Shown here piece after piece: positions 15,571 to 41,860 of a DNA stretch of 64,000 nucleotides (its first letter is position 1; the number at the start of each line of letters is the position of its first letter). The stretch spans positions 13,352,898-13,416,897 of the forward strand of contig OY811972.1 in NCBI GenBank assembly GCA_963681505.1, written 5' to 3'. Source of the stretch: Eunapius fragilis (lineage: Eukaryota; Porifera; Demospongiae; Spongillida; Spongillidae). The translations under genes and the position numbers were made by a program. The notes beneath the pieces are model-generated. The model was not told where the DNA came from, ran no database searches, and worked only from the letters and a program-made list of their open reading frames with translations.

Positions 15571-17625
15571 TCGGAACCTACGCGAGTAGGTTCCATATAG
15601 GAATCCAACAGTATCATGAATGTCATTAAAAAAACGTCACTCACGTCTAGCGGGACATTTAAGAATCGGGTCACTTCGCTCTTAGTGGCAGTCGAGCGAT
15701 ATCAAAAAGGACAACAGTTCTGCGTTGTATCTGTGTCACAAGACGGTGTACATTTAGAGAACAAAAATACTCGTCCCCATCGTCCGTACCCAGTCCCACC
15801 TAAAATTTCTCCTCCGTCGGCTTCTTATTCTTCTTCTTCTTCTTCTTCTTCTTCGGGATAGTATAACTCACGACAGGAACGTTTGTAAAGCACGCCAAGT
15901 GTACCAATCGCTTCAGGATGCGTCCGCAGGTTATCTTCGGGTGTCTGTTAGACGCCTAACTGTTCGGGCAATTAACTAAAGCGAATAGTACCTCATTTGG
16001 TATTCGGTTAAAAATACCCAATTACATCAGCTAAATGCAATAATAGCCACGTGTCGTGGGCGTGATTCAAATTCTTAATATTCCCGCACGCTGTGGAAGA
16101 GGTATACGCACTGAATCTAAGAGCCTTTTCGGGTCCCTACGGCTCCATGTATAAATGTGCCAAATGGTTGAGAAACGGAATGGCCCGGAGCAGTGATATG
16201 CGATAACGTTATACTGACGAATATTCAAGGTATCATTTTCTGCATGACGCCTGTGCGTTACTCTCAACTCTATCAATCGTTACGCAGCTTGAAATGAAAG
16301 CCAAAACTACCATACACGTAAGTACCCGACACTATCGCATATAATTGTTTTGACCGAATTGATTTCTATACAATAGCTTCTTATATAGCATAACTTTCGA
16401 ATTCTGTCGGTGAAACTACATACGCGATCAGATACTACGGTATACAGTCTACAGCAGATATATGTGAAGCAAGAGGCTCCAATTAGAATGTGTCTCTCCC
16501 ACCACCGCCTTTACAGAAAAAAAAAAAAAAAACCGGCAACAACTAGCCACTCGTACACCTACAGATATGCCAAACGAGTGCAATACAAGATACGACAAGG
16601 TGTCAAGCGCGCTACTTAAAGGACCATCAAAGCGACCACCCGAAGGTGCGTTACACCATGAATGTTGAATCTGGACATAAATTATAGCATGTATAGTGTA
16701 TCGCTAAAATGGAAGGAATATTTTATGCAACAGTTACAGCGGTAGATATTGCGTCTCTCTCCACTTTTAGTGCTGTTTGAAATGTGTGCACGCTGTTCGC
16801 TGACAATTTCGTAATAATGCATGTGTATTGTGGTGCATAGATTATATCTGATAATAGTGTCAAAGTTGCTGTGACAACCTATTGTGGCATGGTTTATCTG
16901 ATAATAGCGTGAGATCAGTGGGTACATTGTCTGATGTATTATTTGGCTTCGCTTGCCAGTGGAGGATTTGTTTTAACTAACAGTTGTTTAAATCACCTGT
17001 TTCAGGTCCAGGTCCAGGAGTGGTTCCATGTCCAGCTGCAGGATTAGCTCAACCTGCTCTACCTGCTATATATCCTGGATATAGAAGTATATCCTGGTCC
17101 AGAATATACAGCAGTATATCCTGATTCAGGATATACAAGATGACATGCTCCTGGGTTTTATTATAGCTAGATAAATGAAATACTTGTACTTATTGTTTAA
17201 ATTGTAATACTGTGTGTTTTAATGATACACCCACACCTCAAAAAATTGCATGGCCACGAGATTCTAAAATAAAACTGTCATTTGACATTCTTGCTACATG
17301 GTTACGTTTCAAGAACTAAATCCACCAAAAAATGTAGGAAACAAGTGATAAAAACACTCTCTATGCGAGAAGGTTGGTGGTATATAGGAATCAAAGGCGG
17401 TGGTGGTGTAAAAAGCAAGGGAACAAGAATTGTGATTGAAAAGGAAAAATGAAATAGACCTATATTAGCACACACAGTTATACATGACGACATGCTGCTA
17501 ATATAGGTCTATTTCTTTTTTCCTTTTCAATCACAATTCTTGTTCCCTTGCTTTATACACCGCCACCGCCTTTGATTCCTATATACCACCAACCTTCTCG
17601 CATAGAGAATGTTTTTATCACTTGT
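15571..17625 (-). mobile_element. hairpin-ended element, long copy A
   Basis: A 2.06-kb unit repeated in inverse orientation as copy B (33703-36165). One end is a ~285-bp near-perfect hairpin (17341-17625). The other end is the 22-bp palindrome GGAACCTAC-GCGA-GTAGGTTCC (15573-15594). Homology between A and B stops at these points (CGAT is the last shared sequence), so they are natural ends. Blocks shared with the short members at 24.8 kb and 41.1 kb lie near 15760-15930. Superfamily unknown. Confidence 0.75.
17341..17625. repeat. terminal hairpin H1
   Basis: Begins ACAAGTGATAAAAACACTCT and ends with its complement, with arms of about 125 nt around a ~25-nt loop. It carries the family block GTGTAAAAAGCAAGG and TATTAGCA next to the loop. 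Confidence 0.9.
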
Positions 17626-18087
17626 ATACTTTGAGCCTCAAAGTGTAATGCTTTAGCCAACAGCCCTCTAAGCAGGGAATGACCTCATCTAGGGTCAAGG
17701 GATGGGTATGTTTCATTGCATATCACGAATTTATAAGATTGAAGCAGATCAAGTTGAACGAAAAACATCCAAGCGATTCGAGTTCGAGTTGGAAGGATTA
17801 CCGCGTGGAGTTAATTCCCCAGCCCTTCTGTATAGCTAGATATTCTAAACCAACCAATGATGTAGTATAATGTTGACTAGTGATGAACTTTGAGATACGT
17901 GCAGTATGCCGCCTGAATATACAGTGCGAGTGAGGCGTCCCTCTATAAATAGCGCTAGCTGCGCACGCGAGCTCGTATATATGATCAAATACTAAAGTTC
18001 CACATTTGCATGAATTTCAAGTTAGCATGACTATAAGAATGTACAAAGCTGCTTTAATTGGTCAAATTATGGGCTAAATATAGCTAT
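17626..18087. other. intergenic, 3' flank of Cys-rich gene
   Basis: No gene recognised. On the - strand this is downstream of the Cys-rich gene's stop codon. Confidence 0.4.
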
Positions 18088-20118
18088 CTACTTCTCATAG
18101 GGACACACTGGGCAGCATTTCCCGGGAGGAGGTGGGAGAGGGTAATCGCAATGCGGCGTTGAGCAGCGGCGATGGCAGATTTTTGTCGGGCACACGGGAC
18201 AGCATTCCCCGGGAGGAGGTGGTAGTGGATTGTTGCAGGGCGGCTTAATGCAGGAGGTGTCGCAGATCTTTGGGGGGCATACGGGACAGCATTCCCCGGG
18301 GGGTGGTGGTAGTGGATTGTCGCACAATGGCTTCGTGCAGGGGATATTGCAGATCTTTAGAGGACACACGGGACAGCATTCCCCCGGGGGAGGTGGTAGT
18401 GGATTTTTGCACAACGGCTTAATGCATGCAATATTGCAGATCTTTGTGGGGCACACGCGACAACATTCCCCTGGGGGAGGTGGCAGTGGATTTTTGCACA
18501 GGGGCTTTATGCAGGGAACATTGCAGATCTTTGGGGGGCACACGGGACAGCATTCCCCGGGGGGAGGCGGTAATGGATTCTTGCACAGTGGTTTAATGCA
18601 GGATATATTGCAGATCTTTGGGGGACACACAGGACAGCATTCCCCGGGGGGCGGTGGCAGTGGATTGTCACAGAGCAGCTTAATGCAGGTGACATTGCAG
18701 ATCTTTGGGGGGCACACGGGACAGCATTCCCCGGGGGGAGGTGGTTGTGGATTGTCACAGAGCAGCTTAATGCAGGTGATATTGCAGATCTTTGGTGGGC
18801 ACACGGGACAGCATTCTCCGGGGGGCGGTGGTAATGGATTGTCACACAGTGGTTTAATGCAGGTGATATTGCAGATCTTTGGGGGGCACACGGGACAGCA
18901 TTCCCCTGGGGGCGGTGGTAGTGGATTGTCACACAGTGGTTTAATGCAGCCGATATTGGAGATCACTGGGGGGCACACGGGACAGCATTCCCCTGGAGGC
19001 GGTGGCAGTGGATTGTCACACATCGGTTTAATGCAGGTGATATTGCAGATCTTTGGGGGGCACACGGGACAGCATTCCCCGGGGGGCGGTGGTAGTGGAT
19101 TGTCACACAAGGGCATTGTGCATGCAATATTGCAGATCTTTGGGGGGCACACGGGACAGCATTCTCCTGGGGGTGGTGGCAGTGGATCATTGCACAATGG
19201 CTTAATGCAGGCGATCTTGCAGATCACTGGGGGGCACACGGGACAGCATTCCCCCGGGGGCGGTGGTAGTGGATTGTTACATAAGGGCTTTGTGCATGAG
19301 ATATTGCAGGTCTTTGGTGGGCACACGGGACAACATTCTCCTGTTGGAGGTGGCTGTGGATTGTCGCACAATGGCTTTATGCATGAAATATTGCAGATCT
19401 TAGGAGGGCACACGGGACAGCATTCCCCCGGGGGAGGTGGTAGAGGATTGTCGCACGGAGGCTTATTGCAGGCGACATTACAGATCTTTGGCGGGCATAC
19501 GGGACAGCACTGTCCAGGCGGAGGTGGGATGGGATCTGTACAAGGTGGCTTTACACAACGGAAAATGCAGGGACAGAATGGACAGCATCCGCCGATTGGA
19601 GGTGGTTGTGGGTATTGTCCCAACACGCATATTGGTGCGGCGCATTTTACCAAACTGCAGTCTACGGCTGTTTTATATATAGATGAAAAAGAGTAATATG
19701 AATGTTCTATAATTATATGAATATATATGGGGTCGAGGCAGCGATAAGGGACCTAGCACATATTTTTTCAAGTTTTCAAATTATAACATATTCAAAGAGT
19801 CACCTATGTCCTTTACAACTTCTTTTCTTACGCACAGGAAATAAGTCTGTCAATCATGGAGTTACAGTGGCATGAATTTTTAATTACGCGTACATTTTAA
19901 TTGCGGGCTGATGCTCCTTCCTGGAAATTTGTGCTAGGTCCCTTTTCGCTGCCACGACCCCATACGTACATAATTATATACATTATAATAATTATTATAA
20001 ATTCATGTACGCGCTTTTAAGTTATAATGGTCGATCATTTACCTGTTTCAGTTGATTCCGACACTGATCGCTGTACTAGTAGTATAAGGAAGGCAAATAT
20101 CAGCGTGATAGGCAACAT
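18088..20118 (-). CDS. secreted Cys-rich protein, 18 VWC-like 29-residue repeats
   Basis: Two exons. Exon 1 (20118-20043) starts at ATG and encodes a signal peptide, MLPITLIFAFLILLVQ, with donor GTAAATG after phase 1. Exon 2 (19661-18088) follows acceptor CCGTAG and runs to a TAG stop, giving a protein of about 549 residues. Exon 2 is 18 tandem copies of 29 residues (87 bp) with the pattern C-x4-C-x10-CC-x2-C-x4-C-x3, six cysteines per unit. The typical core is PLPPPPGECCPVCPPKIC. C..P.C......G.CCP.C resembles the second half of von Willebrand factor C modules, as in chordin/kielin proteins, but each unit is much shorter than a full VWC (~60-70 residues). The outer units (first, second, last) are the most diverged and the inner ones nearly identical, so the array grew from the middle. 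A TATA box sits ~45 bp upstream. An extracellular matrix or adhesive role is inference. Confidence 0.85.
19727..19964. mobile_element. MITE with 35-bp TIRs in intron 1
   Basis: About 238 bp. Its ends, TATGGGGTCGAGGCAGCGAT then AAGGGACCTAGCACA, are mirrored at the right with two mismatches. No coding capacity. It occupies most of the single intron of the Cys-rich gene. Confidence 0.85.
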
Positions 20119-20160
20119 TGTTATCCGTGGAACACTTGTTGGTGCATAGGGTTGGTGGTT

Positions 20161-20169
20161 CTTTTTATA
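20161..20169 (-). promoter_or_regulatory. TATA box of Cys-rich gene
   Basis: TATAAAAAG on the - strand, about 45 bp upstream of the ATG at 20118, leaving room for a very short 5' UTR. Inferred from position and motif. Confidence 0.5.
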
Positions 20170-20219
20170 CATCACCTCGAGCGAGGTGTTTAGGCTTTCC
20201 TCCGGTCCAAGGTCTAGCA

Positions 20220-20689
20220 TTAATTGAAGTGTTAATATGTAGTATGCTTGCGGTTTTTACTCTGTTCTGTAGACGACAATGCATTAGCAAATAATAGAAA
20301 TGTATGAATTAAGGGCAATATTCAGATTTATTATTAGCGTTTTTACTTAAAGTAGAGGCTGTGATGTCTGAAGGAACAGCACGATAATACATACATGGAG
20401 GACGTACATACTAAACATAGGTCCGTTTCATTCCTAATTACCGCTTAACTGTTACGCAAGTGAATCATCGGATAAAGTAGGATTCCAATATAATAGTGTG
20501 TGGTATTAAAAGAGAGGTAAGAAATGTCTATGAATGTTAAAGACCTATATCAGCACATTCACACTATAATGTGCTAAACACAACTGTTTCATTCATTTAC
20601 GCTTGCTTCCGTTTCTTTTACACCGCAGTTTCCTTGGAATCCTACATCCTTTATCAAAGATAAATAGTCTTGTTTCGTGAGTTTTTATT
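20220..20689. other. intergenic
   Basis: AT-rich upstream region of the Cys-rich gene. No gene seen. Confidence 0.35.
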
Positions 20690-21200
20690 CACGGATTTAG
20701 CTGCTAATTATTAACTTTCACCACAAATCTGCCAACACTGATGAGAATTCACGTCTCGATATACGTGCCAGGGTTTTTTGGAATCGTGGTCAGGATGCTT
20801 TATTTGATGTAAGGGTTTTCCACCCTAATGCTCCAAGCTACCGTTCCATGGACTTGCCAGCAATATACCACAGACATGAATCGAAAAAAAAAGCGACAAT
20901 ATAGTCAACGGGTGAAAGAGGTTGAGCATGGGGTCTTCACATCACTGATTTTTAGTACAACAGGAGGAATGGCTCGTGAGTGTTAAACATTTTACAGGCC
21001 GTTTGGCAGACATGATTTCCATCAAGCAGGACAAACCCTATTCTCTCTTAGTTAGCTGGCTACGCACTCGACTCTCTTGTGCTTCCCTTCGTGCTGCTGT
21101 TCTGTGCATTCGTGGAAGCAGGTCATCACATCGCCACCCTATTTACGAACATGACCTTACCCTTGCCACTGTTGAGGGTAAGATACCATCCTCAGTCTAA
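20690..21200 (+). pseudogene. mobile-element protein fragment (nuclease-like block)
   Basis: Readable blocks [47 protein letters not shown] and PYSLLVSWLRTRLS with CIRGSRSS belong to a protein segment I recall as widespread in aquatic-animal genomes next to reverse-transcriptase genes. The 'RLDI...FFDVRVF' spacing resembles a PD-(D/E)xK nuclease core. The source element is uncertain, so it is treated as a broken fossil. Only this fragment is present in the window. Confidence 0.5.
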
Positions 21201-22779
21201 AAATTTATCAGTAACACTTTTATTTTTTTAAAAGATTTTTTTGTACAGTATGTGGATTATTGTATTTGGATATTTTTGACAAGATTGTATAGTAGTGGGC
21301 GGAGCACTTTTGCATACACGTAGGTTACAAAATAGTTTGAGTTTTTGGTTAGCTGGGTCGATCCAAATTCCTAACTCCTATCGGTGCTACATTCGTAGTA
21401 ACTGTTGTGACTTACTGCGTATATAAGTGATTATACTTCAGCTGTCGCACATTTACCTACGAATATTTTGCGTTTAATAAGTAGTACAGTTATAATCCCA
21501 CGTCGTATTCATATTTAGCACTTTTGAGATCAAGGGGCCACATCAGCGTGCCCGTTTCAACACCTTACATTCCAAATAAGGTCCAGCAGTTACTTGTATC
21601 GTGAAGGAACAACTACTGAATATTAACCCACATGCATAATGGAGCGGCAATGCAATATAATAAAGTGGCCATAAAAACAATTCTAAGTTCTAGTAGAACT
21701 TTATGATGACCCAGACATTCTAGTCTTGCAGTACAGTCTAAAACTTCATCATTCGTTGGTCTGGAAGTTCTAAAAGCTTCGTATGATCCCCAGTGTGAAC
21801 TGAAAGGCTCCATAGCTCGATTAAGTATATTACGTAGCCTTTGTAGTTCCTGAATTAAGAAGTAGATTTGTGTTGTACATAAACTACAACTTAAAATATG
21901 ACAACTCAAATGTAACAGCCAAGGCAGTTGAAAAACTAGCAACAGGCATATCAATGTCCACTTATATTCGTCGCTTGCTTACAGGTAAAATTGTAAAATG
22001 AGCTTGGAATAAGATTATCTAAATCGGCCAATAGTCAGCAAATACTCCATAAGGAGCAGCCAATGCAACCGGGAAAACACATTCTATCCCATGCCCACTC
22101 GGCAGATTGCATTTTCCGGAAAGCAACCGTAATGAAAATGACGGCATTGTTAAAACATTTTTTATGTTTATTGTGTCGAAAGTTATCTCGCGGGGTACCT
22201 TGTACACCCGCAGGTCGGTACACAGCTAAAAACGTTTTGCCGGTAGGTCATTGCACGTAGTATTTGTTATTGGACCGTGAAAACAAGTCTTAAAGGTCAA
22301 TTAGCAAGCCGATCTAGTGATACAGAATGCAAACACACCACCACACATGCAGACATGCATCACACCACGCTCCTAATGACCTACACTTTAATCATGTTAT
22401 GAACGTGTACGAACATCAGGGGCTACATTTCAGTGTATCCTTTAACGAAGTATAGTCATTGCCATGCACACTTGAAAAATGAAACACCTTCATCTACTAC
22501 GCCTTTATATTTATTGTGACCTTAATTTCAGTGGACTTAATGCATGGACATTTTGCATGTATAGTGTCACGGTAGTTTGCGGTTTTATTGCATCGAGTAA
22601 TGAATGACTGTCTAGATTTTGTTAAACGTTTTAAATGATTATTTTTCATCGGCACAGTGCGTATACTATCATATAAGATGCTGTGACCTGCGTTGTTATT
22701 TTGACTGTCAATATGTCTAAATAACACAATGACACAAGCGTGATGTTAGTCATGATATATAGTCAGACTATTATGTGTT
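21201..22779. other. intergenic, no gene recognised
   Basis: Short open frames on both strands show no recognisable domain, and no repeat structure stood out. Introns of an unseen gene cannot be excluded. Confidence 0.4.
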
Positions 22780-23039
22780 TATAGGTAATTGGGGACATCA
22801 GTGCATAACTCAGCTTACAATTGAGATTAAAAATTTCTGATTTCACCGTTAAACTTAGAGATGCATCACCTTATTATGTCATTAGAACTTTACATGTTAC
22901 CACGAAATAGTCATCTTTCATACAAATTATTATAAAACACTCACATTTCTTTTTGTTTTGTCCTATTTCATTACCTTCTATTTCTTTTAGTTGTAGTAAC
23001 TGGTCATTATTGTATCAGGACTAAAATGGTAGTGTGGTG

Positions 23040-23567
23040 TCTTTTCAGGTCTCTCGATCATGTCTCATAGCTTCCATTAATGCACTCATGCCCTCACTGT
23101 ATGCTCATATCCCATGGTCTCCTATACATGGTCAGGTCCAATGGCCTCCATGTCGCTGATGTGTTTTTCACATGTAGCTGGACTGTGTGTTGCATGTATT
23201 GGACTGGTTTCAGTGGCGTACACAATTGCCCCTATGCCTTTGTCACAGTGAGGGCATTGCCCCTCCACACACACACACTCACACATCACACACACACACA
23301 CATAACTATCCCATGTCATTCACAATAAATGCTCAAATGCAGAGTATGTACCATTTAGAGGTTTAAAATGACTTGGGACTTACTATTTATTACCTTTGTT
23401 ACACAAAATTTCCAGGGCCCAGGAATTAATTTTTTGGGATACGTGGACTGAATAATATTCCTGCCAGGCTAATATACCAGTACAAAGTAGTTCTTCTAAA
23501 GTCCCTATTACAGAGAGGATCTACAAGTATCACAAAAAATAAATTTGAACAGCTTCCTAGAAAGAAG

Positions 23568-23627
<60 letters not shown>

Positions 23628-23822
23628 ACACACCATGCGTAAATAAGAAGCCATGTTTGAATGCAAGCTTTACAATGGCCCAGTCTTTTGAGATAGGATA
23701 GCAATAATATTCACTGCCACTATATGCAAAGCTTCCATCCCTACTGTACAAGTAGCTTGAGTGCACATCACAAAAAATAAATTGCAGTCTCCAAACAACA
23801 TGCGCACATATATATATATTCA

Positions 23823-23897
<75 letters not shown>

Positions 23898-24600
23898 ACA
23901 TGCATATGCACACACACACACATGTACACTCATGGAAATTCCAGTGCTACTTAAGATTAGTGGTTTCTGGTGAGGATGCTGTCAAGTTGCTATGACCAAC
24001 TCTATGGAAGCCACCCGTGACATGTTTGGAAAGCGGCACTGCCCAGGCCACTATTGTCCAAACACGTACTTGAAATGACACCAAGTGCTCTGATCTCAGG
24101 TGGGTATATGTGGCTGTACGTCTCATTACTGTGGAGTCCTACACACAAATGCATTATACAGCTATTAGATGGCCTATCTGCTTGCCACCACCTCATGTAA
24201 ATCATGTGCTACATGACCATGGCTTGCATGGGTGACTTAAAGGTAGTAAGTCTGAAACAATGGTGCACACTCTGATTTTGAGCATGTGTTAGTGTGAATG
24301 GCGTGGGATAGTTATGGGTGTGTGTGTGCATGAGTGTGTATGTGTGAGTGTGCGTGTGGAGGGGCAATGCCCTCCCTGTGACAATGGCATGGGGGCAGAA
24401 TTGCCCACGCCACTGACACCAGTCCAATATATGCAACACACCAGTCGAGTTACATGTGAAAAACACATCCGTGACGTGGAGGCCATTGGACATGACCATA
24501 TAGAGGAGACCATGGGATATGAGCACACAGTGGAGGGTACGAGTGCATTACATGTAATGGAAGCTACATACATCGTACGAGACATGGGAGACCTGAAAAG
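23040..24600. repeat. fold-back repeat with ~250-bp arms
   Basis: Sequence at 23040-23330 (CATGTCTCATAGCTTCCATT..., GTCAGGTCCAATGGCCTCC, AGTGGCGTACACAATTGCCC) returns in reverse complement at 24240-24600. CA/GT runs and a ~0.9-kb spacer lie between. The AGTGGCGTA..AATTGCCCC ends look like transposon termini. In addition, 22785-22855 repeats in direct orientation at 24660-24725 (GGACATCAGTGCA, CTGATTTCACCGTTAAACT). Confidence 0.7.
23569..23892. repeat. CA microsatellites
   Basis: Two long (CA)n blocks, 23569-23631 and 23827-23892, separated by about 195 bp. The open frames on them are composition artefacts. Confidence 0.95.
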
Positions 24601-24779
24601 ACACCGAACTAACATTTTTGAGCTGATGCAATTATGATCAGTTACTTCATGTCCAGAAATTGTGGACATCAGTGCACAATGGCTTGCAATTGTGATACAA
24701 AAATTCTGATTTCACCGTTAAACTCAACGGACACTTTACGAAATGATCTCGTTATTAAAAATAGCTAATCAATTATTCT

Positions 24780-25598
24780 TTAATATTATATTTTCCCTTG
24801 GGAGTGAAGTTAGGAAAGGCCATCGGTTTTACATAAAAGCGTGCCAAACAAATCATTGATTTCAGTTATCTAACCATGCGCGTCTGTCATAATGTACACA
24901 TTGTAACTCGTGCCCTCGCTTTCAATTTCGTCGTTTGTTTTATGTCGCAAAACCGCGCGGTTGTAGAGAACAAAAGGGTACTGCCCGTCCTCGTACCCAG
25001 TCCCGGAATGATCATCCTCTGACTCCTACTCCTCCTTGACCACACATAACTTGGGATAGAATAAAGAATGGAAACTTCACCAATAGCTTCAGAATTGGCT
25101 GGAAGGTGCCTACTGTAATCAAATTGTCGATGTATATTTTTGTAATTGTATCGTTAAATTTGGGCCGTACTAAACGTTACTCATATCATTACGGCCGAAT
25201 CTTGACAAGTTTAGAAATGTCGATACCAAACCAGAAAACTACATGCAGGAGCATAGCAAATGATTTACAATCAACTATACGGTCTGTGTAAGACGCATAA
25301 TTAGGTACGAGGGGAAAAATCTATGAAACAAGTAACTAAAAACATTCTCTATGTGAAAATTGGTGAGATATAGGATTTGAAGGCAATGGTGTGTAAAAAG
25401 CAAGGAAACAAGGGTCTGTAATAGTAAGGGAAAATGTCACGGTCCTATATTTAGCACACGAACATCAAACGGGCTAAATATAGGACTATGACATTCTCCC
25501 TATCAGAGACCCTTGTTCCCTTGCTTTTTACACCAACATTGCCTTCAAATCCTATTTCTCACCATTTCAACTTTCTCATGGAGAATATTTTTAGTTGT
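24780..25598 (-). mobile_element. hairpin-ended element, short copy
   Basis: Hairpin H2 (25328-25598) at the right, with a ~0.5-kb body at the left. The body shares with copies A, B and the 41.1-kb copy the blocks GGGACTGGGTACG, TTTTGTTCTCTA and a GCTATTGG/GTTCCTGTC-like segment. Read on the - strand, the body has a frame with an acidic stretch, then FVLYNRAVLRHKTNDEI, which resembles the 41.1-kb copy. The left limit is approximate. Confidence 0.55.
25328..25598. repeat. terminal hairpin H2
   Basis: ACAAGTAACTAAAAACATTC... with GTGTAAAAAGCAAGG and TATATTTAGCACAC towards the loop. The right arm is complementary. Confidence 0.88.
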
Positions 25599-25604
25599 AT
25601 AAAA

Positions 25605-25895
25605 AGTGACACAACCCATGTAGAGTTGCCTTGCTTGGTATAATTAGTCCTAAAAAGTTTTAACTGAATACCTGCCACCCACCACCGACCCCCCTCTCCC
25701 CCGCTACCCCCTTCTCCTTCTGTTTTTTTTTCTCACGACGACCCCTATCCTAATCCATATGTGCCTGCATAAACACTATCACTCCGAACACACACACCAG
25801 CTCACAATAATGGCGTGTACACAGATCACAGATGACCCCACTGACACACCAGCACACACCAACAGTGTATACACTTCTAACCTACACATTTGTTC

Positions 25896-25937
<42 letters not shown>

Positions 25938-27210
25938 AATAGGTCTTCACATCAGAACACACTAGAATAGTGAACATAAGAGTCACCAGCACCCAGTACT
26001 ACACACTGGCTTTTTGTGAGGCAAAACCTTAGAGGGGGGGATAGTTCCTAAGGCAACTCTGAGCCCAGGTTGTATCATTTATTGCTAAGGAGGCCCTCAC
26101 CAATCCATATGCACACCAATTAAGGCATGCACTAACAATAACATGTATCACATATGCCGTCATTCTACCTTAGTGTACAAAAAGGTAAGAGTTCTGTATT
26201 GAGTACACTCACAAAAAGCTGTGTTCTTAGACTACCCTTATCAGAGGTTACCTGCCCTACGTAAAGGGGTAGTGCTCAATAGAATAGGCTAAGAACACTA
26301 ACAGTGTCTTTTTATTATTTTTCCTATCCTACATATCAAAATTCTCTCCGAGATTAGGTGGCTGTATTGTCGATGTGATACAGCCAGCATGACAAAGGCT
26401 TCAGCAAAGGAAGGGCCATTTCAGGCTTGATTTGTAAGGTCATTATGTAGTTGCATGGCTCTGCAGATTTTCATTCATGGACATTATTGATGTGCATAGC
26501 ATTAAAGATTGTGTGTATGTGTGGTAAATGTGGACAGTTGGAGAAGGGGCTGGTTGGACAATGGTGGACTTGCTCAATGCAGGTAGGCCACATATAAAAT
26601 CATGTTATGATTAGTTGGGTGTTGTGTAAACGTTTCCTCCCCCCCTCCTGGAGAAACATGTCTTGTTGGCAAATACATAACGCTAACCTGGGTAGCAATT
26701 TGTAATACACATGGCCTGTACATATGTATTTAATAATATCCAGCCATTTATTGCCACTGAGTATTTGCATGTGTGAGCTGTAATGTGATAGATGGTATGT
26801 GATAGTGCATAGGTGATGGTTTGGGATGATATTATGTGACGGTGTGTAGTCAAAGGTCTGTGCACATGTAATGGTGTTATTTAATCCTGTGTAGGTAATG
26901 GTCTTTGCACCTGTGACGGGTTATATGTGATGGTATGTAGGTGATGGTCTTCAGAAAGGAAGCGATGGCAGACATGATAAGGAGGCGAACAGAAAGTGAT
27001 GGTACATTGAACACACACCTGACGTAGACACAATTTACAATCTCCGTGAAACAGCACCACCGGGGCAAAGATCCAGGAGTCCCCCCTCCACCAGACAGGC
27101 ACCAGCACGATGCCACCAGAAACCACTTCACAGACACTGGCCTATGGCTCAGTGCTGACAGAGACAGAGACTATTTGCCTCGTGTTGTGTTAAAATAAAA
27201 CGTGACAATA
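25605..27210. other. intergenic with CA run
   Basis: A pyrimidine-rich block near 25690-25735, a CA microsatellite at 25899-25936, and an imperfect GTGATGGTATGTAG-type tandem array around 26780-26950. No gene recognised. Confidence 0.45.
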
Positions 27211-28920: not shown

Positions 28921-29400
28921 ATGGCAGCTGAAGACCTTACGGGGTTTTTTAATCAAGAGGGGTCGGAGGAGGAAGAGGATGACATACATCCTCCGACTCC
29001 TCTCCCCATCACCCCGCCACCTCCAGAAGCCCCGCCACTACTACCACCACCAGCAGCACTGCCCCCACCACCACTACCAGCAGCGCTACCCCCGCCGGCA
29101 CCACCAGCGCTGCCCCTGCCGGCACCACCAGCGCTACCCCCGCCGGTACCACCAGCGCTACCCCCGCCGGCACCACCAGCGCTGCCCCCGCCGGCACCAG
29201 CAGGGATAATCCCGCCACCACCACCACCAGCTGCGCTCCCGCCGGTACCACCGCCGCCTGTGCTCCCTCCCTGGCCTGCATGGCCACTGCCACCCTGGCA
29301 GAATGCAGCATGGCGGGGAGGCCGGGGAGGAGGACGTCTTCCGCAGGCGACGAGGGCGCGGGCGAGGACAATTAACAATAAACGCTACAAATTCATATAA
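28921..29400 (+). CDS. proline-rich protein with acidic head and RGG tail
   Basis: 159 residues from ATG at 28921. Three zones are visible. Residues 1-25 are acidic (QEGSEEEEDD). About 26-125 are proline/alanine/leucine-rich, built of PPAPPALPP-type 8-10-residue units with PPPP runs. The C-terminal 35 are basic, with AAWRGGRGGGR and RARARTINNKR. No catalytic domain or membrane segment. RGG/basic ends often bind RNA and poly-Pro stretches bind SH3/WW/EVH1 modules, but that is inference. A TATA box, probable 5'-UTR intron and AATAAA near the stop support a real transcript. It lies directly left of hairpin H3, where other hairpin copies carry their body, and its EEEEDD-then-Pro start recalls the frame in the 41.1-kb copy. 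It may therefore belong to that element family. Much of the middle is GC-rich and repetitive, so codon evidence is weak. Confidence 0.55.
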   Translation: MAAEDLTGFFNQEGSEEEEDDIHPPTPLPITPPPPEAPPLLPPPAALPPPPLPAALPPPAPPALPLPAPPALPPPVPPALPPPAPPALPPPAPAGIIPPPPPPAALPPVPPPPVLPPWPAWPLPPWQNAAWRGGRGGGRLPQATRARARTINNKRYKFI

Positions 29401-29515
29401 TTATAATTATTATTATTAAAGTTATTTGTTATTGCATTAAGAGATAAAGGGGATCATCGAAATTATATATGCTCTTCCTACATTTCATCGACTACGGTGA
29501 AAAAAAACCTATGAA

Positions 29516-29798
29516 ACAAGTAAATAAAAACATTCTCTAACGAGAGAGGGATTGACCAATGGTGGGGTAAAAAGCACGGAAACAAGAGTGACAGAAATTT
29601 TACTCGAAAATTGAAATTGGCCTATACTTAGCACGCTCACATAATAACAGCGCATGCCTGAGTAATGTGCTAAATATAGGCCTATTTCAATTTTCGAGTA
29701 AAATTTCTGTCACTCTTGTTTCCGTGCTTTTTACCCCACCATTGGTCAATCCTATATACCAACAACTCTCTCGTTAGAGAATGTTTTTATTTACTTGT
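29516..29798. repeat. terminal hairpin H3
   Basis: ACAAGTAAATAAAAACATTC..., arms of ~125 nt, family block TGGGGTAAAAAGCACGG. It abuts the second copy of the 395-bp direct repeat. Confidence 0.9.
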
Positions 29799-33300: not shown

Positions 33301-36300
33301 AACCTAGGGTATATTGTCCCCCACGAACAATTCACCCTAGGATATAATGTCCCCTCCCTGGTTGTACTGTCCCCCCTACCCGGACAATACACCCCAGGGT
33401 ACATTGTCCCCCATCATTTAAAAATCCCGATAGCACATTCCATTATTGTCCCGCATATATATTACGTGTCATGCATATATTGATTCAAACGTAAATAGAA
33501 TGAACCTTGCCTCTCAAAAGGACAGCGTATTAGCAACTAATCCAAAAGAAATGAAATTCAATGAGTGCATGAATTACACTGTATATAAACATAAACAAAA
33601 TACACAATCAACAATACTAATGATCGTATTCTGGAAGTGTTTTGCCAATTTCATTACCTGCAGTGCATTGTGGATAAAAACAGAGGAGCAGTTGTACTGA
33701 AAACAAGTGATAAAAACATTCTCTATGCGAGAAGGTTGGTGGCATATAGGAATCAAAGGTGGTGGTGGTGTAAAAAGCAAGGGAACAAGGATTGTGATTG
33801 AAAAGGAAAAATGAAATAGACCTATATTAGCAGCATGTCGTCATGTTTAACTGTGTTTGCTAAAATAGGTCTATTTCATTTTTCCTTTTCAATCACAATC
33901 CTTGTTCCCTTGCTTTTTACACCACCACCGCCTTTGATTCCTATATACCACCAACCTTCTCGCATAGAGAATGTTTTTATCACTTGTTTCCTACATTTTT
34001 TGGTGGATTTAGTATTGTATTTAGTTCTTGAAACGTAACCATGTAGCAAGAATGTCAAATGACAGTTTTATTTTAGAATCTCGCGGCCATGCAATTTTGT
34101 TGAGGTGTGGGTGACCATTAAAATACACAGTATTACTATTTAAACAATAAGTACAAGTATAGCTATAATAAAACTCAGGAGCGTGTCATCTTGTATATCC
34201 TGGATCAGGATATACTGCTGTATATTCAGGATCAGGATATACTTCTGTATCCAGGATATACAGCAGGTAGAGCAGGTGGAGCTAATCCTGCAGCTGGACA
34301 TGGAACCACTCCTGAACCTGGATGTGGAGCAGGTGGAGTGACTCCTGGACCTGGACCTGATTTAAACAACCGTTAGTTAAAACAAATCCTCCACTGGCAA
34401 GCGAAGCCATATAATACATCAGACAAAGATTACATGTACCCACTGATCTCACGCCATTATCAGATAAACCATGCCACAATACGTTGTCATCAGCAACTTT
34501 GACACTATTATCAGATATAAACTATGCACCACAATTACGAAATTGTTGTCAGCGAACAGCGTGCACACATTTCAGACAACAGCACGGAGAGAGACGCAAT
34601 ATCTTCCGCTGTAATGCGCCTATCAATGTTACATGAGACCCCCCCCTGGGGCATTGGGAGGGATTTGACCTTTATTAAAGCAAACTGCCCCTGGTTTGGG
34701 GTTAATAACCGGTCAAATGTCTATACTACGTGGTCTGATAAAAAGGTCAAACGCGTGCCCGACTACGGTCAAATGTGTGGCCAGTAATAATATTCACGCA
34801 TCAAATCCCCACCTAATCCCGACTTCGCCCCAGGGGAGGGGGGTCTCACGTAACAATGATAGGTGCATAACTGTTGCATAAAATATTTTAGCGATACACT
34901 ATACATGCTACAATTTATGTCCAGATCCAACACTCATGGTGTAACGCACCTTCGGGTGGTCGCTTTGTTGGTCCTTTCAGTAGCGCGCTTGACACCTTGT
35001 CGTGTCTTGTATTGCACTCGTTTGGCATGTCTGTAGGTGTACGAGTGGCTAGTTGTTGCCGGGTTTTTTTTTTCAGTAAGGGGGAGACACATTCTAATTG
35101 GAGCCTCTTGCTTCACATATATCTGCTGTAGACTGTATACCGTAGTATCTGATCGCGTATGTAGTTCCACCGACAGAATTCGAAAGTTATGGTATATAAG
35201 AAGCTATTGTATAGAAATCAATTCGGTCAAAACAATTATATGCAACAGTGTCGGGAACTTACGTGTATGGTAGTTTTGGCTTTCATTTCAAGCTGCGTAA
35301 CGAATGATAGACTTGAGAGTAACGCACAGGCGTCAAGCAGAAAATGATACCTTGAATATTCGTCAGGAGCCTTCCTATAATGCTATCGCATATCACTGCT
35401 CCATTCCGTTTCTGAACCATTTGGCATTATGGTTGGACATTTATACATGGCGCTGTAGGTATCCTAAAGGGCTCTATGCAGAAAATGATACCTTGAATAT
35501 TCGTCAGGAGCCTTCCTATAACATTATCGCATATCACTGCTCCATTCCGTTTCTCAACCATTTGGCATTATGGTTGGACATTTATACATGGCGCTGTAGG
35601 GACCCTAAAGGGCTCTATAGATTCAGTGCGTATACCTCTTCCACAGCGTGCGGGAATATTAAGAATTTGAATCACGCCCACGACACGTGGCTATTATTAA
35701 ATTAAAAATAGCTAGCTGATGTAATTGGGTATTTTCAACCGAATACCAAATGAGGTACTATTCGCTTTAGTTAATTGCCCGAACAGTTAGGCGTCTAACA
35801 GACACCCGAAGATAACTTGCGGACGCATCCTGAAGTGATTGGTACACTGGCGTGCTTTACAAACGTTCCTGTCGTGAGTTATACTCTCCGGAAGGAAGAA
35901 GAATAAGAATAAGAAGCCGACGGAGGAGAAATTTTAGGTGGGACTGGGTACGGACGATAGGGACGAGTATTTTTGTTCTCTAAAAGTACACCGTCTTGTG
36001 ACACTGATACAACGCAGAACTGTTGTCCTTTTTGATATCGCTCGATTGCCACTAAGAGCGAAGTGACCCAATTCTTAAATGTCCCGCTAGACGTGAGTGA
36101 CGTTTTTTAATGACATTCATGATACTGTTGGATTCCTATATGGAACCTACTCGCGTAGGTTCCGATTTACGCTTCGGTACAATGAAGCCCCAAATGTTGG
36201 GGACAGAGTACAGACAACTGCAGCGGCGGCGAAGGGCAAAGAGCTAGCAATACAATGCTACAGGGCTAATGCAAAGGTCAAAACATATTCAGGTGAAATT

Positions 36301-39300
36301 ATAGCTTCAGAGGGTACTGGACGTGGGCGCAAATGAAGAGTACACTGGGACGATGTCAAAATCAGTGAAGCCATTCACAGTTCTAAGGTACTGGAGAATG
36401 CTGTGACTGTTGAGGAGACCGAAGATGATGTAGCCATGGCTGAATATGATTCAGACGTACAGCTGCCGGCAGATGAGCTAGCGGAGGCGGAACCAGAAAT
36501 GGAAGAAGGCGGGGAACCATCATCAATCGACCCGTTAGTTGTCAAAGGCATCAAATGGACCATAGTTGATAATACGGTCGATATTTGTTACATCCCAAGC
36601 AACGTGGGTAAATACTATGGAACAGAACACAACAACTGGATTCTGAGAGTAGTAGAAGGGAATTGGATTTCATTTTGTGGTCATTTCCAGACAAAGCAGT
36701 AGCAGAAATTTTAGACTGTACTGGTGGCTCTATGCTAAATTCAAAACCATCAGCAATCCCTGTGAGTAAAGGAGTGCTGTTCATATGCTAGGTTTTCTGC
36801 TTTCACTGACCAGAACACATTCAAAACATCATGATCATACTGATGATTACACCTATATAATGTCATTCTTATGAGTATTTTCATCACCGTGATGAAAATA
36901 AGAATGCCATGACATTATATAGGTGTAATACAAGTATAGTAACACGAATATTGTGCATAATGAGGCTAAGATTGCATTGCTTTTTTCTAGCTTTACCTAA
37001 GAGGTAACCGCAATAAGGTCGTTGTGAATGTGCATGCATCAATCATAATTCTCATACGGTAATTACAATTAATGACTATTTATATTTCATACGATCATGG
37101 AGACACCTTTTAGTGCAAATGTAATTATTAAATCTAGGTCTGAAGGCTCAACAAGTAGTGCTGAAGTTTGATAACTGGAGTTATCAAATCTTGATCAATC
37201 TATGATTAAATGCATCTACCACTGCCTTGACAAGATACCGTGGATCCTTTTGAGCATCCTCTCTATATATTTATTTCTTGGTACAGCCAGTTGGAGGTGG
37301 GCTTTCCAGTCCTGAAAGCGATCACATCTCATCCCAAATCCCTCTTTCAGACGGAATGGTGGAACTAGCCTACTTTCTTGCATGTTCCAGAGATTCTTAA
37401 TGTTACCTGCGATTGACTAAGGCAGTAGTTAATAGCACTCCAATACCACCTCTCACTTCTGCCCATATATAATGTGGCTCCAAAGAGATGACATCTGGCG
37501 AGGTCTGTATAATGTGCTGTTCTCCACTTAACATTGATTCATCTGTTTCATCCTCATTCTGTAGCTCTTCTACGTCCCTTTCTATACCAAAGTCCTCGTT
37601 GACCTGCTCGCTTATGGCTGGCCGGGCATCCTGAGTAGCGACATTGGGATGAGGCGGAGGCGGAATCACCAAACTAACAGGCTGCTGGACTTTGAAAAAT
37701 GCGGCTCCATGCTCTGATGTCAATAATTCATCCTGGAAAAAGTGTCCCCCCAGACTATATATCCTAAGGTATATTGTCCCCCGGTTATGCCTATTGTCCC
37801 TAGGTTATGCTGTCCGGGGGGACAATATCTGAGGGGACATTATATACTACGACACCGTACTACAAAACGAAAGTTCACAGTTCAGTGGACTATTGGGGGG
37901 GACAATATATCCTCCAACACCGGTTAATAAATTTTACGCTAACCAGATAATGTAAGTTCATGAAACATACACCATGATGCGAATGATCAATAATGAACTG
38001 TGGGAGCCAAATGATCGCTGGGAAAGGTGCAATAACTTGGCACAACACATCTATATCAGACAAAGTAAAATTTACCAACACAACTAAAAAGGAGGATGAC
38101 GACTATTACGAAAAGTTAGGGCGGTCTTGTACCCTTAGAATGGAATCTTGTAACAGAGATGTAAGCCAGCACGAGTTTAACTATTATTGCTGATAGCACT
38201 TATCGTTCGAAAATAGTACACATTATTTGAAACCTTATCATTTTCGCGTGCATACCGTAATGATTTGCCAAGAAATGAAAGTAACGCGTTTGAAAGAGAA
38301 TATCAATCACATTTGTTATTATATTAAATTAATTACCGTAAACTCGCAATTACAAATCGCGGCTTCTAATCGGGACTACAAACATAAATTCCTCCGACAA
38401 AAAGCCTAGCACCGATGTAATGATATACCCGGCCTCACCCGATTTTTTAAATTGCAATCTTCGTTGGTTCAAGCGTGTGTGCAACCTTCAACCACTGTTT
38501 TGGCGATGCTGATACTTTTATGGTGATATCCAAACCTTCCATGCAAAATTTTGTGGGCGCCACGACTTCGAATTGTGAGTTTATGGTAACTCATTTGATA
38601 CTATTGTTCAAAAAACGTTGCGTTCATTTGTGGACACTCGTACAAACAGTAATACTCACAGAACGTTGAGGAACACCCCCGCACAGGATATGATGAGCAT
38701 GACATCAGCGTTAATCTCGTAATCCGTGTTGATCACTCGCAGTATGGCTTTATAAACCAGCACCCCTGTGAGCACCCATATGAGTAGAATGGAGATGATA
38801 GCACCTATGACCTCTGCGTGGTGGTTGTATATTTTTTCATTAGCGGTGAGGGGGGAGAGATGAGAATAATGTTTAAATGCTTTCATCGATAAACATATCG
38901 TGTTAGCTTTCTACATGCATCGCAATTATGGAAGTTCAGGTATTCAATTTCAATAGTTATGAATAGATTGACTGCTGCTACTCACATATCTAGAATGAAT
39001 CATTTCTAAATGTTCTAATCTTAAATTGGCAACTAATCAAATCACACAAAGGGGAGACAAAATTTTATTAAGAAATTCTTACTATCGTCTGAATATACAT
39101 TTGAAATTGAAGGTATTGGTGGTTGATTGCTAATTTTGATGTGTATTATTTTTTACTTGCACTTTAGTAATAACACAGTGCTTGTTTCAGAATGACTAAA
39201 TACTTAGGTATTTATTAAAGAATAAATATTATTGAAATGCAGGAGAAAATTGAATATTCGTAATAGTTCAAACGTAGTAGCAACTTTTTAAATATGAAAT

Positions 39301-40579
39301 CATATTCCTAGCTCTCTTATGGTACCCTGAGGCAAAAATTAATAATACTAAATGTATATACTTATACACTGGATTGCAAAAAAATAACTATCATTGCCCT
39401 GCAATGCATTTCACAATAATGGTTGCAACACATTCTAATCTGAAGACAAAATTGATTTCATTCTGCAGCATTTCGGATGCTGCAGCCGAATGGTATTGAT
39501 GCAGCAATTTACAATAAAATTAATTTATTCTTGAACACTCACAAGTTAACACGACACATGGCGTGCTAAATGCGTGCATTACTAAGCTTCACTGTTATTA
39601 TAACCATGTTTCATACAGCGAATAGTTAAAACCATTGTCAGCAATGCACTGCTTTGATTTTTTTTTAGCGAGTTAGTAATCTAAATAGCTTAATAAATTT
39701 AAATCAGCTGTCTCAATCATATAGCAGTTTACAACTACACTTTAAGACAACGCCAAAACTGATATCTGGAGGGCGAGCTATAATGTGATCCTCACGTAAG
39801 GTTACGTAGTGACAAAATTAAAGGATACAGACTATAACAGATGAGTTAACAATATACATGTATAGCTAAAGCGAGTGCCAAAAATTTTATACGGTTTTTT
39901 TAAATAGGATGCACAGCAATAAAATTATTTCTTACTTACTGTGCACTGATACAAAACCATATATGCTCGTATGTATATACCTGCTCTATGCCACCCGAAA
40001 GGCAGCCTCTTCGTAGCGGGGCGCGCCGCTAACCATATTGCAAATAGGCTGATTAGAAAACCCGCCAAATCGGACATCATGTGAGCCGCGTCTGTAAGTA
40101 TAGCCAGGCTGTTGGAGAAGTATCCGCCTGTAGAATAAATAAATATTTCAGTGGGAGGATGCTCGGGTCACGCAACACCCCTCCGTGGTGGAAATTATCC
40201 ATTGACCAGTGTCCAAACTGGATACACAAGCCTGGCACTGTACCAAACGAATATAAACATAACTTCCATACAGTGCCACGCAGGTGCACGTCACATTGGT
40301 GGATGTGTATTGCAATATAACATGCATGCGTGCATGCACTTTATAATGTATGCAAACAAGCTAGCCGGATTAACTCTTAAGCACATGAATTGCAACATAA
40401 ATACGCCCCAACACATGCAAGCACTGCAAGCACACCGTCATTTTATAAATACGCACCTAACATTTCTGCAAGCATGAATATGAAAGAAAGGACGGCCGCT
40501 ATGATGAGTTTGTTTCTTGCCTGCTTTCGTACTCCGCTTTCTTCTCGAGGATGGCAGCGGCATACAGGATCATTCCTCG
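30353..40579 (-). CDS. ZnT/SLC30 zinc exporter (copy 1)
   Basis: Cation-diffusion-facilitator that moves Zn2+ from cytosol into vesicles or out of the cell by H+ exchange; closest to SLC30A2/3/4/8. Seven exons with matching phases: 40579-40457, 40127-39981, 38813-38660, 32528-32219, 31998-31893, 31775-31641 and 30510-30353 (TGA). Exon 1 gives CRCH then [20 protein letters not shown] (TM1). Exon 2 has [14 protein letters not shown] (TM2 H-x3-D zinc ligands) and [14 protein letters not shown]. Exon 3 holds TM4 and [11 protein letters not shown]. Exon 4 has a Cys-containing [10 protein letters not shown] loop, few histidines, and HVLGD (second H-x3-D). Exon 5 reads [13 protein letters not shown]. 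Exons 6-7 form the cytosolic domain ([11 protein letters not shown], ending [11 protein letters not shown]). About 380 residues are accounted for; the exon with the start codon was not found. The third intron is enlarged by a 4.7-kb insertion. All zinc ligands are intact. Confidence 0.9.
30685..31475. repeat. 22-bp minisatellite in ZnT intron (unit 1)
   Basis: Unit GTTACACCTCATGCAGCATG plus CA/AA, with shorter (GTTACACCTCATCA) and longer (ATGCC insertion) variants, in the intron between the last two ZnT exons. It is open in several + frames only because the units lack stops. The paralogous array is at 48432-49700. Confidence 0.95.
33703..33987. repeat. terminal hairpin H4
   Basis: ACAAGTGATAAAAACATTCT..., closest to H1. 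Arms are almost fully complementary, with the loop around CAGCATGTCGTCATG. Confidence 0.9.
34615..34867. mobile_element. PIF/Harbinger-type MITE, TAA target duplication
   Basis: Present in copy B but absent from copy A, which reads CTGTAA-CTGTTGC. The insertion duplicates TAA (34612-34614 and 34868-34870). Ends are TGCGCCTATCAATGTTACAT then GAGACCCCCC, mirrored at the right. TWA duplication is the PIF/Harbinger hallmark. Confidence 0.8.
36180..36860 (+). pseudogene. possible PiggyBac-like N-terminal exon
   Basis: An acidic stretch ([15 protein letters not shown] and [14 protein letters not shown]) is followed by [10 protein letters not shown]. After a frame change comes [19 protein letters not shown], resembling the 'f.l.fp.d.l..I...tn' region at the N-terminus of PiggyBac-derived proteins. 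Family assignment is weak. It lies in the 4.7-kb composite next to copy B. Confidence 0.35.
36847..36928. repeat. ~82-bp imperfect palindrome
   Basis: TTACACCTATATAATGTCAT...TTTTCATCAC meets its complement with small bulges. A short fold-back unit. Confidence 0.85.
37205..37735 (-). pseudogene. PiggyBac-like fragment, inverted copy of 2985-3480
   Basis: On the - strand it gives [16 protein letters not shown], a Pro-rich spacer and [17 protein letters not shown], then the [18 protein letters not shown] block. It is the same text as at 2985-3480. The upstream 45 bp of that text (CGTACTACAAAACGAAAGTT) lies separately at 37856-37900 in the opposite orientation, so the fragment has been rearranged around the right end of the composite. 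Confidence 0.6.
38820..39975. other. ZnT intron 2, unit 1
   Basis: AT-rich and co-linear with 52270-53700 of unit 2, except for the MITE inserted only in unit 2. No coding frame. Confidence 0.6.
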
Positions 40580-41098
40580 CTATTTCGTTCTATGTATAGT
40601 TGTGAATTTTATTTTTGGGGGAAGGGGGGGTGGGGGGGGGCGGGAGGAATTCACTTGCAAATGCAATTTACATTTAATAATAAGTACGTGCATGGACATG
40701 CATGCAAAGGATTTCGCACACGCATACAATGTACGAAAGCATCTTTATAGATACGAGAACTCTGCCATGGCCTTATATTTGATAAGTTGTGTACTTATAT
40801 ACTTCACTAGTGAGCAACCCTTCAGCACATGCAGGGTTAGGAGGGGTACAATGATACACACACACACTCTCCGCCACAACATCTAAGTCCGGACAAAATT
40901 CTTGTAGAATGCCTAACATAACCATAATGGGTTGTTTTAGGTCCTGTATAAACAGTACAAGTTTAGGACCTAATCCATGAAGGCCTAAACCATGGTTTAG
41001 GTCCTAAATTATGGTATTGTTAACAAAGCAATACCATGCAACTGCAATGCCTAATAATACACATGCATTTAGTATTACTTATTAGACAAACATAATAT

Positions 41099-41860
41099 AC
41101 AAGTAAATAAACACATTCTCTCTGAGAAAGTTGGTGGGATATAGGTTTTTGCAGGCAAATAGTATACTGGTGTAAAAAGCAAGGAAACAAGTTTTATCAG
41201 AAGGGAAAATGTAATAGTCCTATATTTAGCACACTTGGACTAAGGCATATGCTGTTTCTATGCTAAATATGGGACTATTACATTTTCCCTTCTGATAAAA
41301 CTTGTTTCCTTGCTTTTTACACCAGAATACTATTTGCCTGCAAAGACCTATATCCCACCAACTTTCTCAGAGAGAACGTTTTTATTTACTTGTTTCCTTA
41401 ATTTTTTTTTACATCCAAATAGGTACTTTTGTTTAATTAGACTTGATAAGACCGTATATAGGCTTTTAGGCTTTTGTGTATCAAAGCCTAAAAGCGAGTC
41501 CTCCAGCAAATTCTAAAGCTATTGGTGCAATTTTCATTGCTGAAAAGTGTTCCTGTCCCGAGTTATGAGTTCCCAAGAAGAAGAAGCAGACGACCCGCCC
41601 ATTATTTTTGGAAGGGGAACAAGGACAGCAGTATTTTTCGTTCTCGACAACCACGCGGTTCTACGACGTGAAACCAAAACGAAACTACTCAGTTTTGACT
41701 TCTAGATCTATTGCCGCAACAAATTAGACGATCCGATCGTCGGGAGCGAAGCTACGGTAGGGTCGCTGGATTTTAATTAAATTCATAGTCGAGGTCAAAA
41801 CCTATCTATATGGAAGTCTCTAGCGTATGGCAAGCGGTATGCAACAAAAATAAATCATGA
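41099..41860 (+). mobile_element. hairpin-ended element, short copy at 41.1 kb
   Basis: Hairpin H5 (41099-41393) is followed by a ~460-bp body holding the family blocks GCTATTGGTGCA, GTTCCTGTCCCGAGTTATG and GTATTTTTCGTTCTC. An ATG-led frame at 41565 starts MSSQEEEADDPPIIFGRGTR and continues with FVLDNHAVLRRETKTKL. A small palindrome GACGATCCGATCGTC (about 41727-41741) may correspond to the terminal palindrome of copies A/B. Absent from unit 2, so it arrived after the duplication or was lost there with ~3.3 kb. Confidence 0.65.

What the first reader, a model, noticed from the sequence alone, without database searches (positions are those of the whole stretch)
17341..41393. New family of elements ending in a ~285-bp hairpin with arm co-variation
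Five hairpins (17341-17625, 25328-25598, 29516-29798, 33703-33987, 41099-41393) share outer ACAAGT(G/A)ATAAAAACATTCTC and GTGTAAAAAGCAAGG but differ elsewhere. In every copy both arms changed together, so the hairpin is kept while its sequence drifts. Two long copies (A, B) end on the other side in a 22-bp palindrome. All bodies lie on the same side of the hairpin. This fits no TIR, Helitron or MITE layout I know well.
Basis: seen in the sequence. Interest (0 to 1): 0.75.

Follow-up and report, generated by a model that had tools for sequence, protein, structure and literature searches.

The report
Helitrons ending in a giant hairpin
The hairpins are the tail ends of jumping genes of the rolling-circle (Helitron) kind, unusual because the end hairpin is about 285 bases long and both of its arms keep changing together.

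Summary
The five hairpins are 3' ends of Helitron (rolling-circle) transposons, or their remains, in a 219-Mb eukaryotic genome. A-family copies stop at the hairpin's outer end; with both ends known (17 loci) they read A|TC + 9-bp stem-loop ... long hairpin ...CTTG|T. One exact and two supporting empty sites show insertion at A^T without duplication. Autonomous copies encode an intact Rep-helicase; three chosen without regard to the hairpin, and a fourth found through it, end in one. Arm co-variation is very strong: 65 of 109 pairs have both-sided changes (25 in shuffles). Four near-identical copies differ from the main hairpin type at just two bases, and these pair with each other. The 5' stem-loop co-varies too (five sequences, one 9/4/9 shape), and an 11-14-base block is shared, subfamily by subfamily, between the 5' end and the hairpin arms. 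Closest known is Helitron2, described with short 3' hairpins. Most likely mechanism (inferred): the hairpin ends rolling-circle transfer, and its arms are kept alike by copying or repairing one from the other. New variant of a known kind.

The parts
15571..17624 (+). Copy A: complete non-autonomous element, 2054 bp, A|TC...CTTG|T
   Evidence: 90% identical over its length to a copy at another locus; ends read
15573..15594 (+). 5' stem-loop (GGAACCTAC GCGA GTAGGTTCC), 2 nt from the 5' end
   Evidence: folds alone as ssDNA; 897 genome hits with up to 2 mismatches, control 0
15595..15605 (+). 5' copy of the shared block ATATAGGAATC, which recurs in both hairpin arms
17342..17624 (+). 3'-terminal hairpin of copy A, flush with the 3' end (A17341 and T17625 extend the pairing)
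   Evidence: the empty site of another copy shows that the last T belongs to the target
16563..16655 (+). Remnant of the autonomous element's first ORF (31 aa, 84% identical)
   Evidence: tblastn
33704..36165 (-). Copy B: complete non-autonomous element, 2462 bp, with an internal 141-bp tandem duplication (35337-35618)
33704..33986 (-). 3'-terminal hairpin of copy B
36142..36163 (-). 5' stem-loop of copy B
28921..29797 (+). 3' part of a subfamily-C element: proline-rich ORF 28921-29400 (159 aa) followed by the hairpin; 5' end not found
   Evidence: 94% identical to the 3' end of the C copy at C2:13909813 over 29425-29798; same order of proline-rich ORF and hairpin as in the autonomous A element
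29517..29797 (+). 3'-terminal hairpin, subfamily C; left arm lacks 13 bp
24923..25598 (+). Decayed element related to subfamily T3; 5' end not recovered
   Evidence: 90.6% match of 24923-24975 to the T3 autonomous 5' region and 79% match of the hairpin to T3; 5' region read
25328..25598 (+). 3'-terminal hairpin, T3-like, 88% arm identity
41100..41824 (-). Subfamily-D non-autonomous element, 5'-truncated at the loop of its 5' stem-loop
41100..41392 (-). 3'-terminal hairpin, subfamily D

Best explanation
These are Helitron transposons with enlarged ends. SHOWN: elements start 5'-TC plus a 9-bp/4-nt/9-bp stem-loop, carry a Rep(HUH-Y2)-PIF1 helicase gene when autonomous, end flush in a ~285-bp hairpin (...CTTG-3'), and insert between A and T with no target duplication. 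SHOWN: the arms of the hairpin, and those of the 5' stem-loop, change together, and an 11-14-base block starting at base 24-25 from the 5' end matches the block ending 39-40 nt from the 3' end within each subfamily measured. INFERRED from published Helraiser work: Rep nicks at the 5' TC, the helicase peels off a single strand, both ends fold, and the 3' hairpin marks where the transfer must stop. INFERRED: when single-stranded or replicated, the two arms pair, and template switching or mismatch repair rewrites one arm from the other, so that a change in one arm becomes a pair of changes; elements whose hairpin no longer pairs leave fewer copies. The shared block is most likely a Rep contact site that must be the same at both ends.
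For: Helitron: PF14214 gives 91 matches, 31 of them in open frames of 1,976-2,096 aa (my count). The 1,977-aa ORF hits Helitron_like_N (2.5e-26), PIF1 (7.3e-20), OTU below cut-off and Helraiser 7lcc_A at 4.6e-25, mainly in the helicase part; HUH GAPHYHV, YVTGY and Walker A are present. Ends: in 19 of 19 A-family loci compared with L013, similarity covers body sequence on one side and stops 0-6 bp past the hairpin's outer end (loci had been chosen by hairpin). 5' ends found in 17; the base before TC is A in 15 of 17, 19 of 21 with four further elements. Empty site GCGTAA^TGTACC for L017 (99.7% over 601 bp); L016 (diverged) and L018 (inserted in a hairpin's end) agree. Autonomous link: C1:1774145, C7:5425357 and C9:6520070, chosen without regard to the hairpin, all end in it; C2:13901780 was found through it. 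Arms; L and R arms sister in 9 of 11 families after a filter that favours matched arms. Four A copies differ from the main type only at the mutually pairing bases 17 and 269; the autonomous hairpin differs at three double-changed pairs (60, 89, 92), one base that closes a mismatch and one loop base. Prediction: the D-family 5' block, read from its hairpin, was found in 4 of 4 fetched loci. No wobble excess: 11 G-T, 12 A-C. Same-genome canonical Helitron: short hairpin, CTAG|T.
Against: No transposition, nicking or small RNA was measured. Arm copying is inferred; selection alone could give compensatory pairs, and one window copy shows position 17 changed on the left arm only, a possible intermediate. 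A T-T stem mismatch is carried by 22 of 25 A hairpins, so arms are not corrected at every round. Of the 12 variable stem pairs in the A family, 6 show only single unpaired changes and one of the five double-changed pairs also has a single unpaired change in one copy. 2 of 11 families (L072, L056) did not group L with R, and 10 of 72 hairpins had been dropped for short length or arm identity under 0.9. 8 of 40 sampled motif hits gave no two-arm hairpin. The 3' end is CTTG, not CTRR. In the best-40 hairpin lists a hairpin lies within 12 kb downstream of a Rep match in 5 cases and upstream in 2, 0.75 expected each: weak, perhaps because those lists hold mostly non-autonomous copies. One of four D loci (L086) lacks the 5' TC.
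Confidence: 0.73

Rival explanations
1. Same Helitron, but arms stay matched by natural selection for pairing alone, one compensatory mutation after another, with no arm-to-arm copying.
For: Co-variation alone cannot tell the two apart; the 9-bp 5' stem-loops also co-vary; the window copy at 17341 has position 17 changed on one arm only, as an intermediate would.
Against: Four copies differ from the main A hairpin at one mutually pairing pair of bases and nowhere else in 285 bp, and the autonomous hairpin has three double-changed pairs, two of them three bases apart, with no intermediate for those three among 25 hairpins.
Confidence: 0.25
2. The hairpin is kept because its RNA works: long double-stranded RNA feeding small RNAs, or an RNA terminator.
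For: A near-perfect 130-bp stem would make ideal dsRNA if transcribed (inference).
Against: G-T and A-C mismatches are about equal (11 and 12 distinct) in 33 oriented hairpins, no wobble bias (small numbers); the hairpin is flush with the DNA end and shares its block with the 5' DNA end; no Rfam match in the window at gathering thresholds.
Confidence: 0.08
3. The hairpins are independent MITEs that happened to insert next to unrelated bodies.
For: Hairpins look like fold-back MITEs, and hairpin motifs are about five times as frequent as A-like 5' ends, although other subfamilies have other 5' ends that this pattern does not count.
Against: The A-family loci compared share body sequence next to the hairpin on the same side (19 of 19); one exact empty site lacks body and hairpin together; autonomous copies chosen without regard to the hairpin end in it.
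Confidence: 0.02

Closest known systems
Helitron2 (Bao and Jurka 2013, PMC3627910; passages read)
   Same: Hairpins at both ends, an inverted repeat placed asymmetrically at the two ends, a single Rep-helicase without endonuclease, 5'-T(C), and compensatory changes noted by those authors in two elements.
   Different: There the 5' repeat is 0-2 bp from the end and takes part in the 5' hairpin, and the 3' repeat is about 20-30 bp from the end, upstream of the hairpin. Here the shared block starts at base 24-25, just outside the 5' stem, and lies inside both arms of a ~285-bp hairpin flush with the 3' end.
Helitron1 / Helraiser (PMC4778049; passages read)
   Same: 5'-TC, A^T insertion without duplication, Rep-helicase, 3' hairpin (shown there to act as terminator).
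   Different: There a 19-bp palindrome 11 nt from a CTAG end and no 5' stem-loop described; here ~285 bp, flush, CTTG end, 5' stem-loop. A canonical short-hairpin CTAG Helitron exists in the same genome, with a Rep domain 25-29% identical.
Helentron / DINE-1 / HINE (PMC4067079; passages read)
   Same: Palindromic subterminal repeats at both ends, 3' palindrome.
   Different: Helentrons encode an endonuclease and DINE-1 prefers TT; here no endonuclease domain was found and the target is A^T.
Non-canonical Fusarium Helitrons (PMC5148889; passages read)
   Same: In two of the groups a 5' TC directly followed by a hairpin; asymmetric inverted repeats.
   Different: 3' hairpin about 30-40 bp from an ATTTT end in those groups, insertion after TNAT.

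Membership tests
Helitron superfamily | Rep (HUH, two tyrosines) plus PIF1-type helicase in one protein | tested here: met
Helitron superfamily | Insertion between host bases without target duplication (A^T) | tested here: met
   exact empty site for L017, two supporting sites; base before TC is A in 19 of 21
Helitron superfamily | Rolling-circle, circle-forming transposition | not testable with these tools
   needs an assay
Helitron1 (canonical) | 3'-CTRR end | tested here: not met
   CTTG in 17 of 17 A copies with both ends (these had been chosen by matches over the whole hairpin), also in C, T3 and A2
Helitron1 (canonical) | Short hairpin 10-12 nt from the 3' end and no 5' hairpin | tested here: not met
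   ~285-bp flush hairpin and a 5' stem-loop
Helitron2 | Hairpins at both ends | tested here: met
Helitron2 | 5' repeat 0-2 bp from the end within the 5' hairpin; 3' repeat 20-30 bp from the end | tested here: not met
   block starts at base 24-25 and ends 39-40 nt from the 3' end
Helitron2 | Rep-helicase clusters with Helitron2 in a tree | not testable with these tools
   no Helitron2 reference proteins were at hand
Helentron | Endonuclease domain; TT target | tested here: not met
   no such domain among Pfam matches (E up to 0.001) of the 1,977-aa ORF; A^T sites
MITE / TIR transposon | Matching inverted repeats at the two ends and target duplication | tested here: not met

The most novel reading that the evidence does not exclude
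The long terminal hairpin is an active copying device: during rolling-circle transfer the 3' end folds back and one arm is synthesised on the other, as in hairpin-ended linear replicons, so that the transposon rebuilds its own end and the end sequence drifts in concert with a matching block at the 5' end. That would be a replication step not described for Helitrons in the passages that I read.
Probability: 0.15. Interest if true: 0.8.

Novelty: new variant of a known kind. Interest (0 to 1): 0.5.

Why it matters
Searches for Helitrons that rely on TC...CTRR and a short hairpin would miss elements like these or file them as MITEs, although one genome holds about 4,300 of the hairpins. Because five subfamilies keep one geometry while their sequences differ, they give a natural experiment on which end features a rolling-circle transposase needs. 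The young, nearly identical copies make it possible to test whether arms are matched by selection or by direct copying of one arm from the other, a question that also stands for hairpin stems in RNA genes.

Tried and rejected
Independent MITE reading: rejected by shared body, empty site and autonomous partners. TIR transposon reading: rejected, no target duplication and unlike ends. Helentron: no endonuclease domain found and another target. RNA-structure reading: not supported by mismatch types, numbers small. Rfam: no match in the window at gathering thresholds. Viral contigs: no relative of the Rep-helicase by six peptide patterns, so the spread outside this genome is unknown. A first look at the 3' regions of two autonomous copies (L034, L037) found no hairpin; this counted against the reading until the neighbouring stretches were fetched and both proved to carry it: in one the end lay beyond the first stretch, after long tandem repeats; in the other it lay before it, because part of the 3' region is missing. 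Earlier descriptions: nine paper searches listed no title or abstract opening about a Helitron with such a long 3' hairpin; I read passages of four Helitron papers and did not open the other listed papers, except the abstract and opening of PMC8794818; Repbase was not available and most subscription journals are not in the library. The host organism was not identified.

Full report
OBSERVATION. The window is G000:C2:13352898-13416897 of a 218.9-Mb genome in 24 contigs. A search with the first hairpin gave 1,218 candidates, of which the best 40 were scored; besides the window copy itself, 39 places match at 98% over the full length. The inner motif has 8,620 hits on the two strands together, so about 4,300 hairpins if each carries it once per arm.

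ELEMENT BOUNDARIES. I fetched 20 of those loci with long flanks; being chosen by the hairpin they all hold it, so that is no test. What is informative is that in 19 of 19 comparisons with L013 the similarity runs into body sequence on one side only and stops 0-6 bp past the hairpin's outer end. In 17 loci the other end was found, and the shared sequence stops abruptly there as well: 5'-TCGGAACCTACGCGAGTAGGTTCCATATAGG ... GTTTTTATCACTTG(T); three of the 20 (L019, L023, L026) lack that end or much of the body. Eight copies on several contigs are 99.75-100% identical to L013 over about 2,020 bp, so the family was active recently. The element in L017 sits inside an autonomous relative, and the empty site in L029 reads GCGTAATGTACC: the element lies between A and T, with no duplication, and the final T belongs to the target. 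The L016 site agrees in a more diverged relative, and the flanks of L018 read as an insertion at the A^T inside another copy's hairpin end. The T after CTTG is seen in all 17, but I had selected hits matching the full 285 bp, so that count is biased.

THE AUTONOMOUS PARTNER. PF14214 (Helitron_like_N) gives 91 matches, 31 in open frames of 1,976-2,096 aa (counted by me from its table). The copy at C1:1774145-1784665, chosen by its 5' end and Rep, has a 1,977-aa Rep-helicase, a proline-rich 182-aa ORF and the same hairpin at its 3' end. Domains: Helitron_like_N, PIF1, DUF6570, an OTU match below cut-off; HUH, YxxxY and Walker A motifs are present. Two further copies, chosen by Rep alone, also end in the hairpin: C7, about 13.3 kb between its ends at 5422006 and 5435259, and C9:6520070, whose 5' end I did not fetch. 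A fourth, C2:13898179-13910108 (about 11.9 kb), was found because a hairpin of list C lay downstream of its Rep. For C2 and C7 I read the ends and the Rep domain, not the whole stretch. Two Rep copies with broken frames (C6, C14), also found through the hairpin, have one downstream. Rep domains of five long-hairpin copies are 79-99% identical to each other and 25-29% to a canonical Helitron of the same genome, whose 3' end has the classical short hairpin followed by CTAG|T in the two loci read.

CO-VARIATION. My extractor found 72 hairpins. 40 loci among the sources came from exact inner-motif hits in order along the first 3.5 Mb of contig 1: 40 of about 49 distinct hairpins listed, nine skipped, six of them because they were already in hand or in other lists. 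32 of these 40 gave a two-arm hairpin, 8 none. On 14 hand-picked representative hairpins 65 of 109 pairs show both-sided changes; 0 of 500 shuffles reach this, and sliding the partners destroys it. For a tree of arms I kept 62 of 72 hairpins (length at least 270, arm identity at least 0.9, which favours matched arms) and one per family below 95% identity: in 9 of 11 families the left and right arm of one hairpin are sisters. Inside the A family (25 hairpins of equal length) 12 stem pairs vary, five of them with double compensatory changes. Four copies (L010, L017, L021, L027) differ from the main type at bases 17 and 269 and nowhere else, and these two bases pair. The autonomous hairpin differs at three double-changed pairs (60, 89, 92), at one base that closes a T-T mismatch, and at one loop base, leaving 130 of 130 stem pairs intact. 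The window copy at 17341 has another double change (88/198) but also three single unpaired ones. The T-T mismatch is kept in 22 of 25, so correction is not constant. Mismatches show no G-T excess over A-C (11 and 12 in 33 oriented hairpins), which speaks for upkeep at the DNA rather than the RNA level, with small numbers.

THE 5' END. Five subfamilies have five different stem sequences but one geometry, TC + 9/4/9. The block after it, ATATAGGAATC, ATATAGGATTGA, CATATAGGATTTGA, ATATAGGAATTG or ATATAGGTTTTG, recurs in hairpin arms of the same subfamily, starting at base 24-25 and ending 39-40 nt from the 3' end in the elements measured (A, autonomous A, A2, C, T3). For subfamily D I expected the 5' block from the hairpin and from a truncated copy in the window, fetched four loci, and found stem-loop and block in four of four; one of them (L086) lacks the TC. 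For T4 the match rests on a 5' end in L021 and a hairpin in another locus, L028.

MECHANISM. In published Helraiser experiments (PMC4778049, passages read) the 3' hairpin acts as a transfer terminator and its loss raises read-through; Bao and Jurka (PMC3627910, passages read) proposed pairing between end repeats for Helitron2. I infer the same stop signal here, in an enlarged form. For arm matching I infer template switching or repair; mutation patterns consistent with template switching have been reported for stems of RNA genes (PMC8794818, abstract and opening read). Neither step was measured here.

STANDING. It is a Helitron by protein and insertion chemistry and resembles Helitron2 most, but fails Helitron2's repeat placement and Helitron1's CTRR and short-hairpin features as tested. 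I call it a new variant of a known kind. That it is unreported is only as strong as the nine paper searches listed in Tried and rejected.

Noticed in passing
window 3633-5435: A 443-bp inverted repeat (93% complementary, 917 nt between) enclosing a 159-aa open frame without Pfam match: perhaps another transposon with long inverted ends.
   Followed up: partly
window 28921-29400; L029 from 9673 into L030: Proline-rich ORF with an acidic start and a basic, glycine-rich end just upstream of the hairpin, seen in one A and one C element though its repeats differ; no Pfam match.
   Followed up: partly
L029:680-1324: 215-aa ORF upstream of the Rep-helicase with repeated KANPEKKKASVRESY units; a remnant is kept in both complete window copies; perhaps a first exon of the same protein.
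   Followed up: partly
window 18088-19752 (-): Long open frame of cysteine-rich units on a 16-copy 87-bp tandem repeat; VWC match below cut-off.
   Followed up: partly
L038:200-340, L039:220-350: Canonical Helitron in the same genome with short hairpin and CTAG|T end; it served as control.
   Followed up: yes
window 58820-59347 (-): Open frame with a ZIP zinc-transporter match below cut-off, perhaps an exon of a host gene.
   Followed up: no
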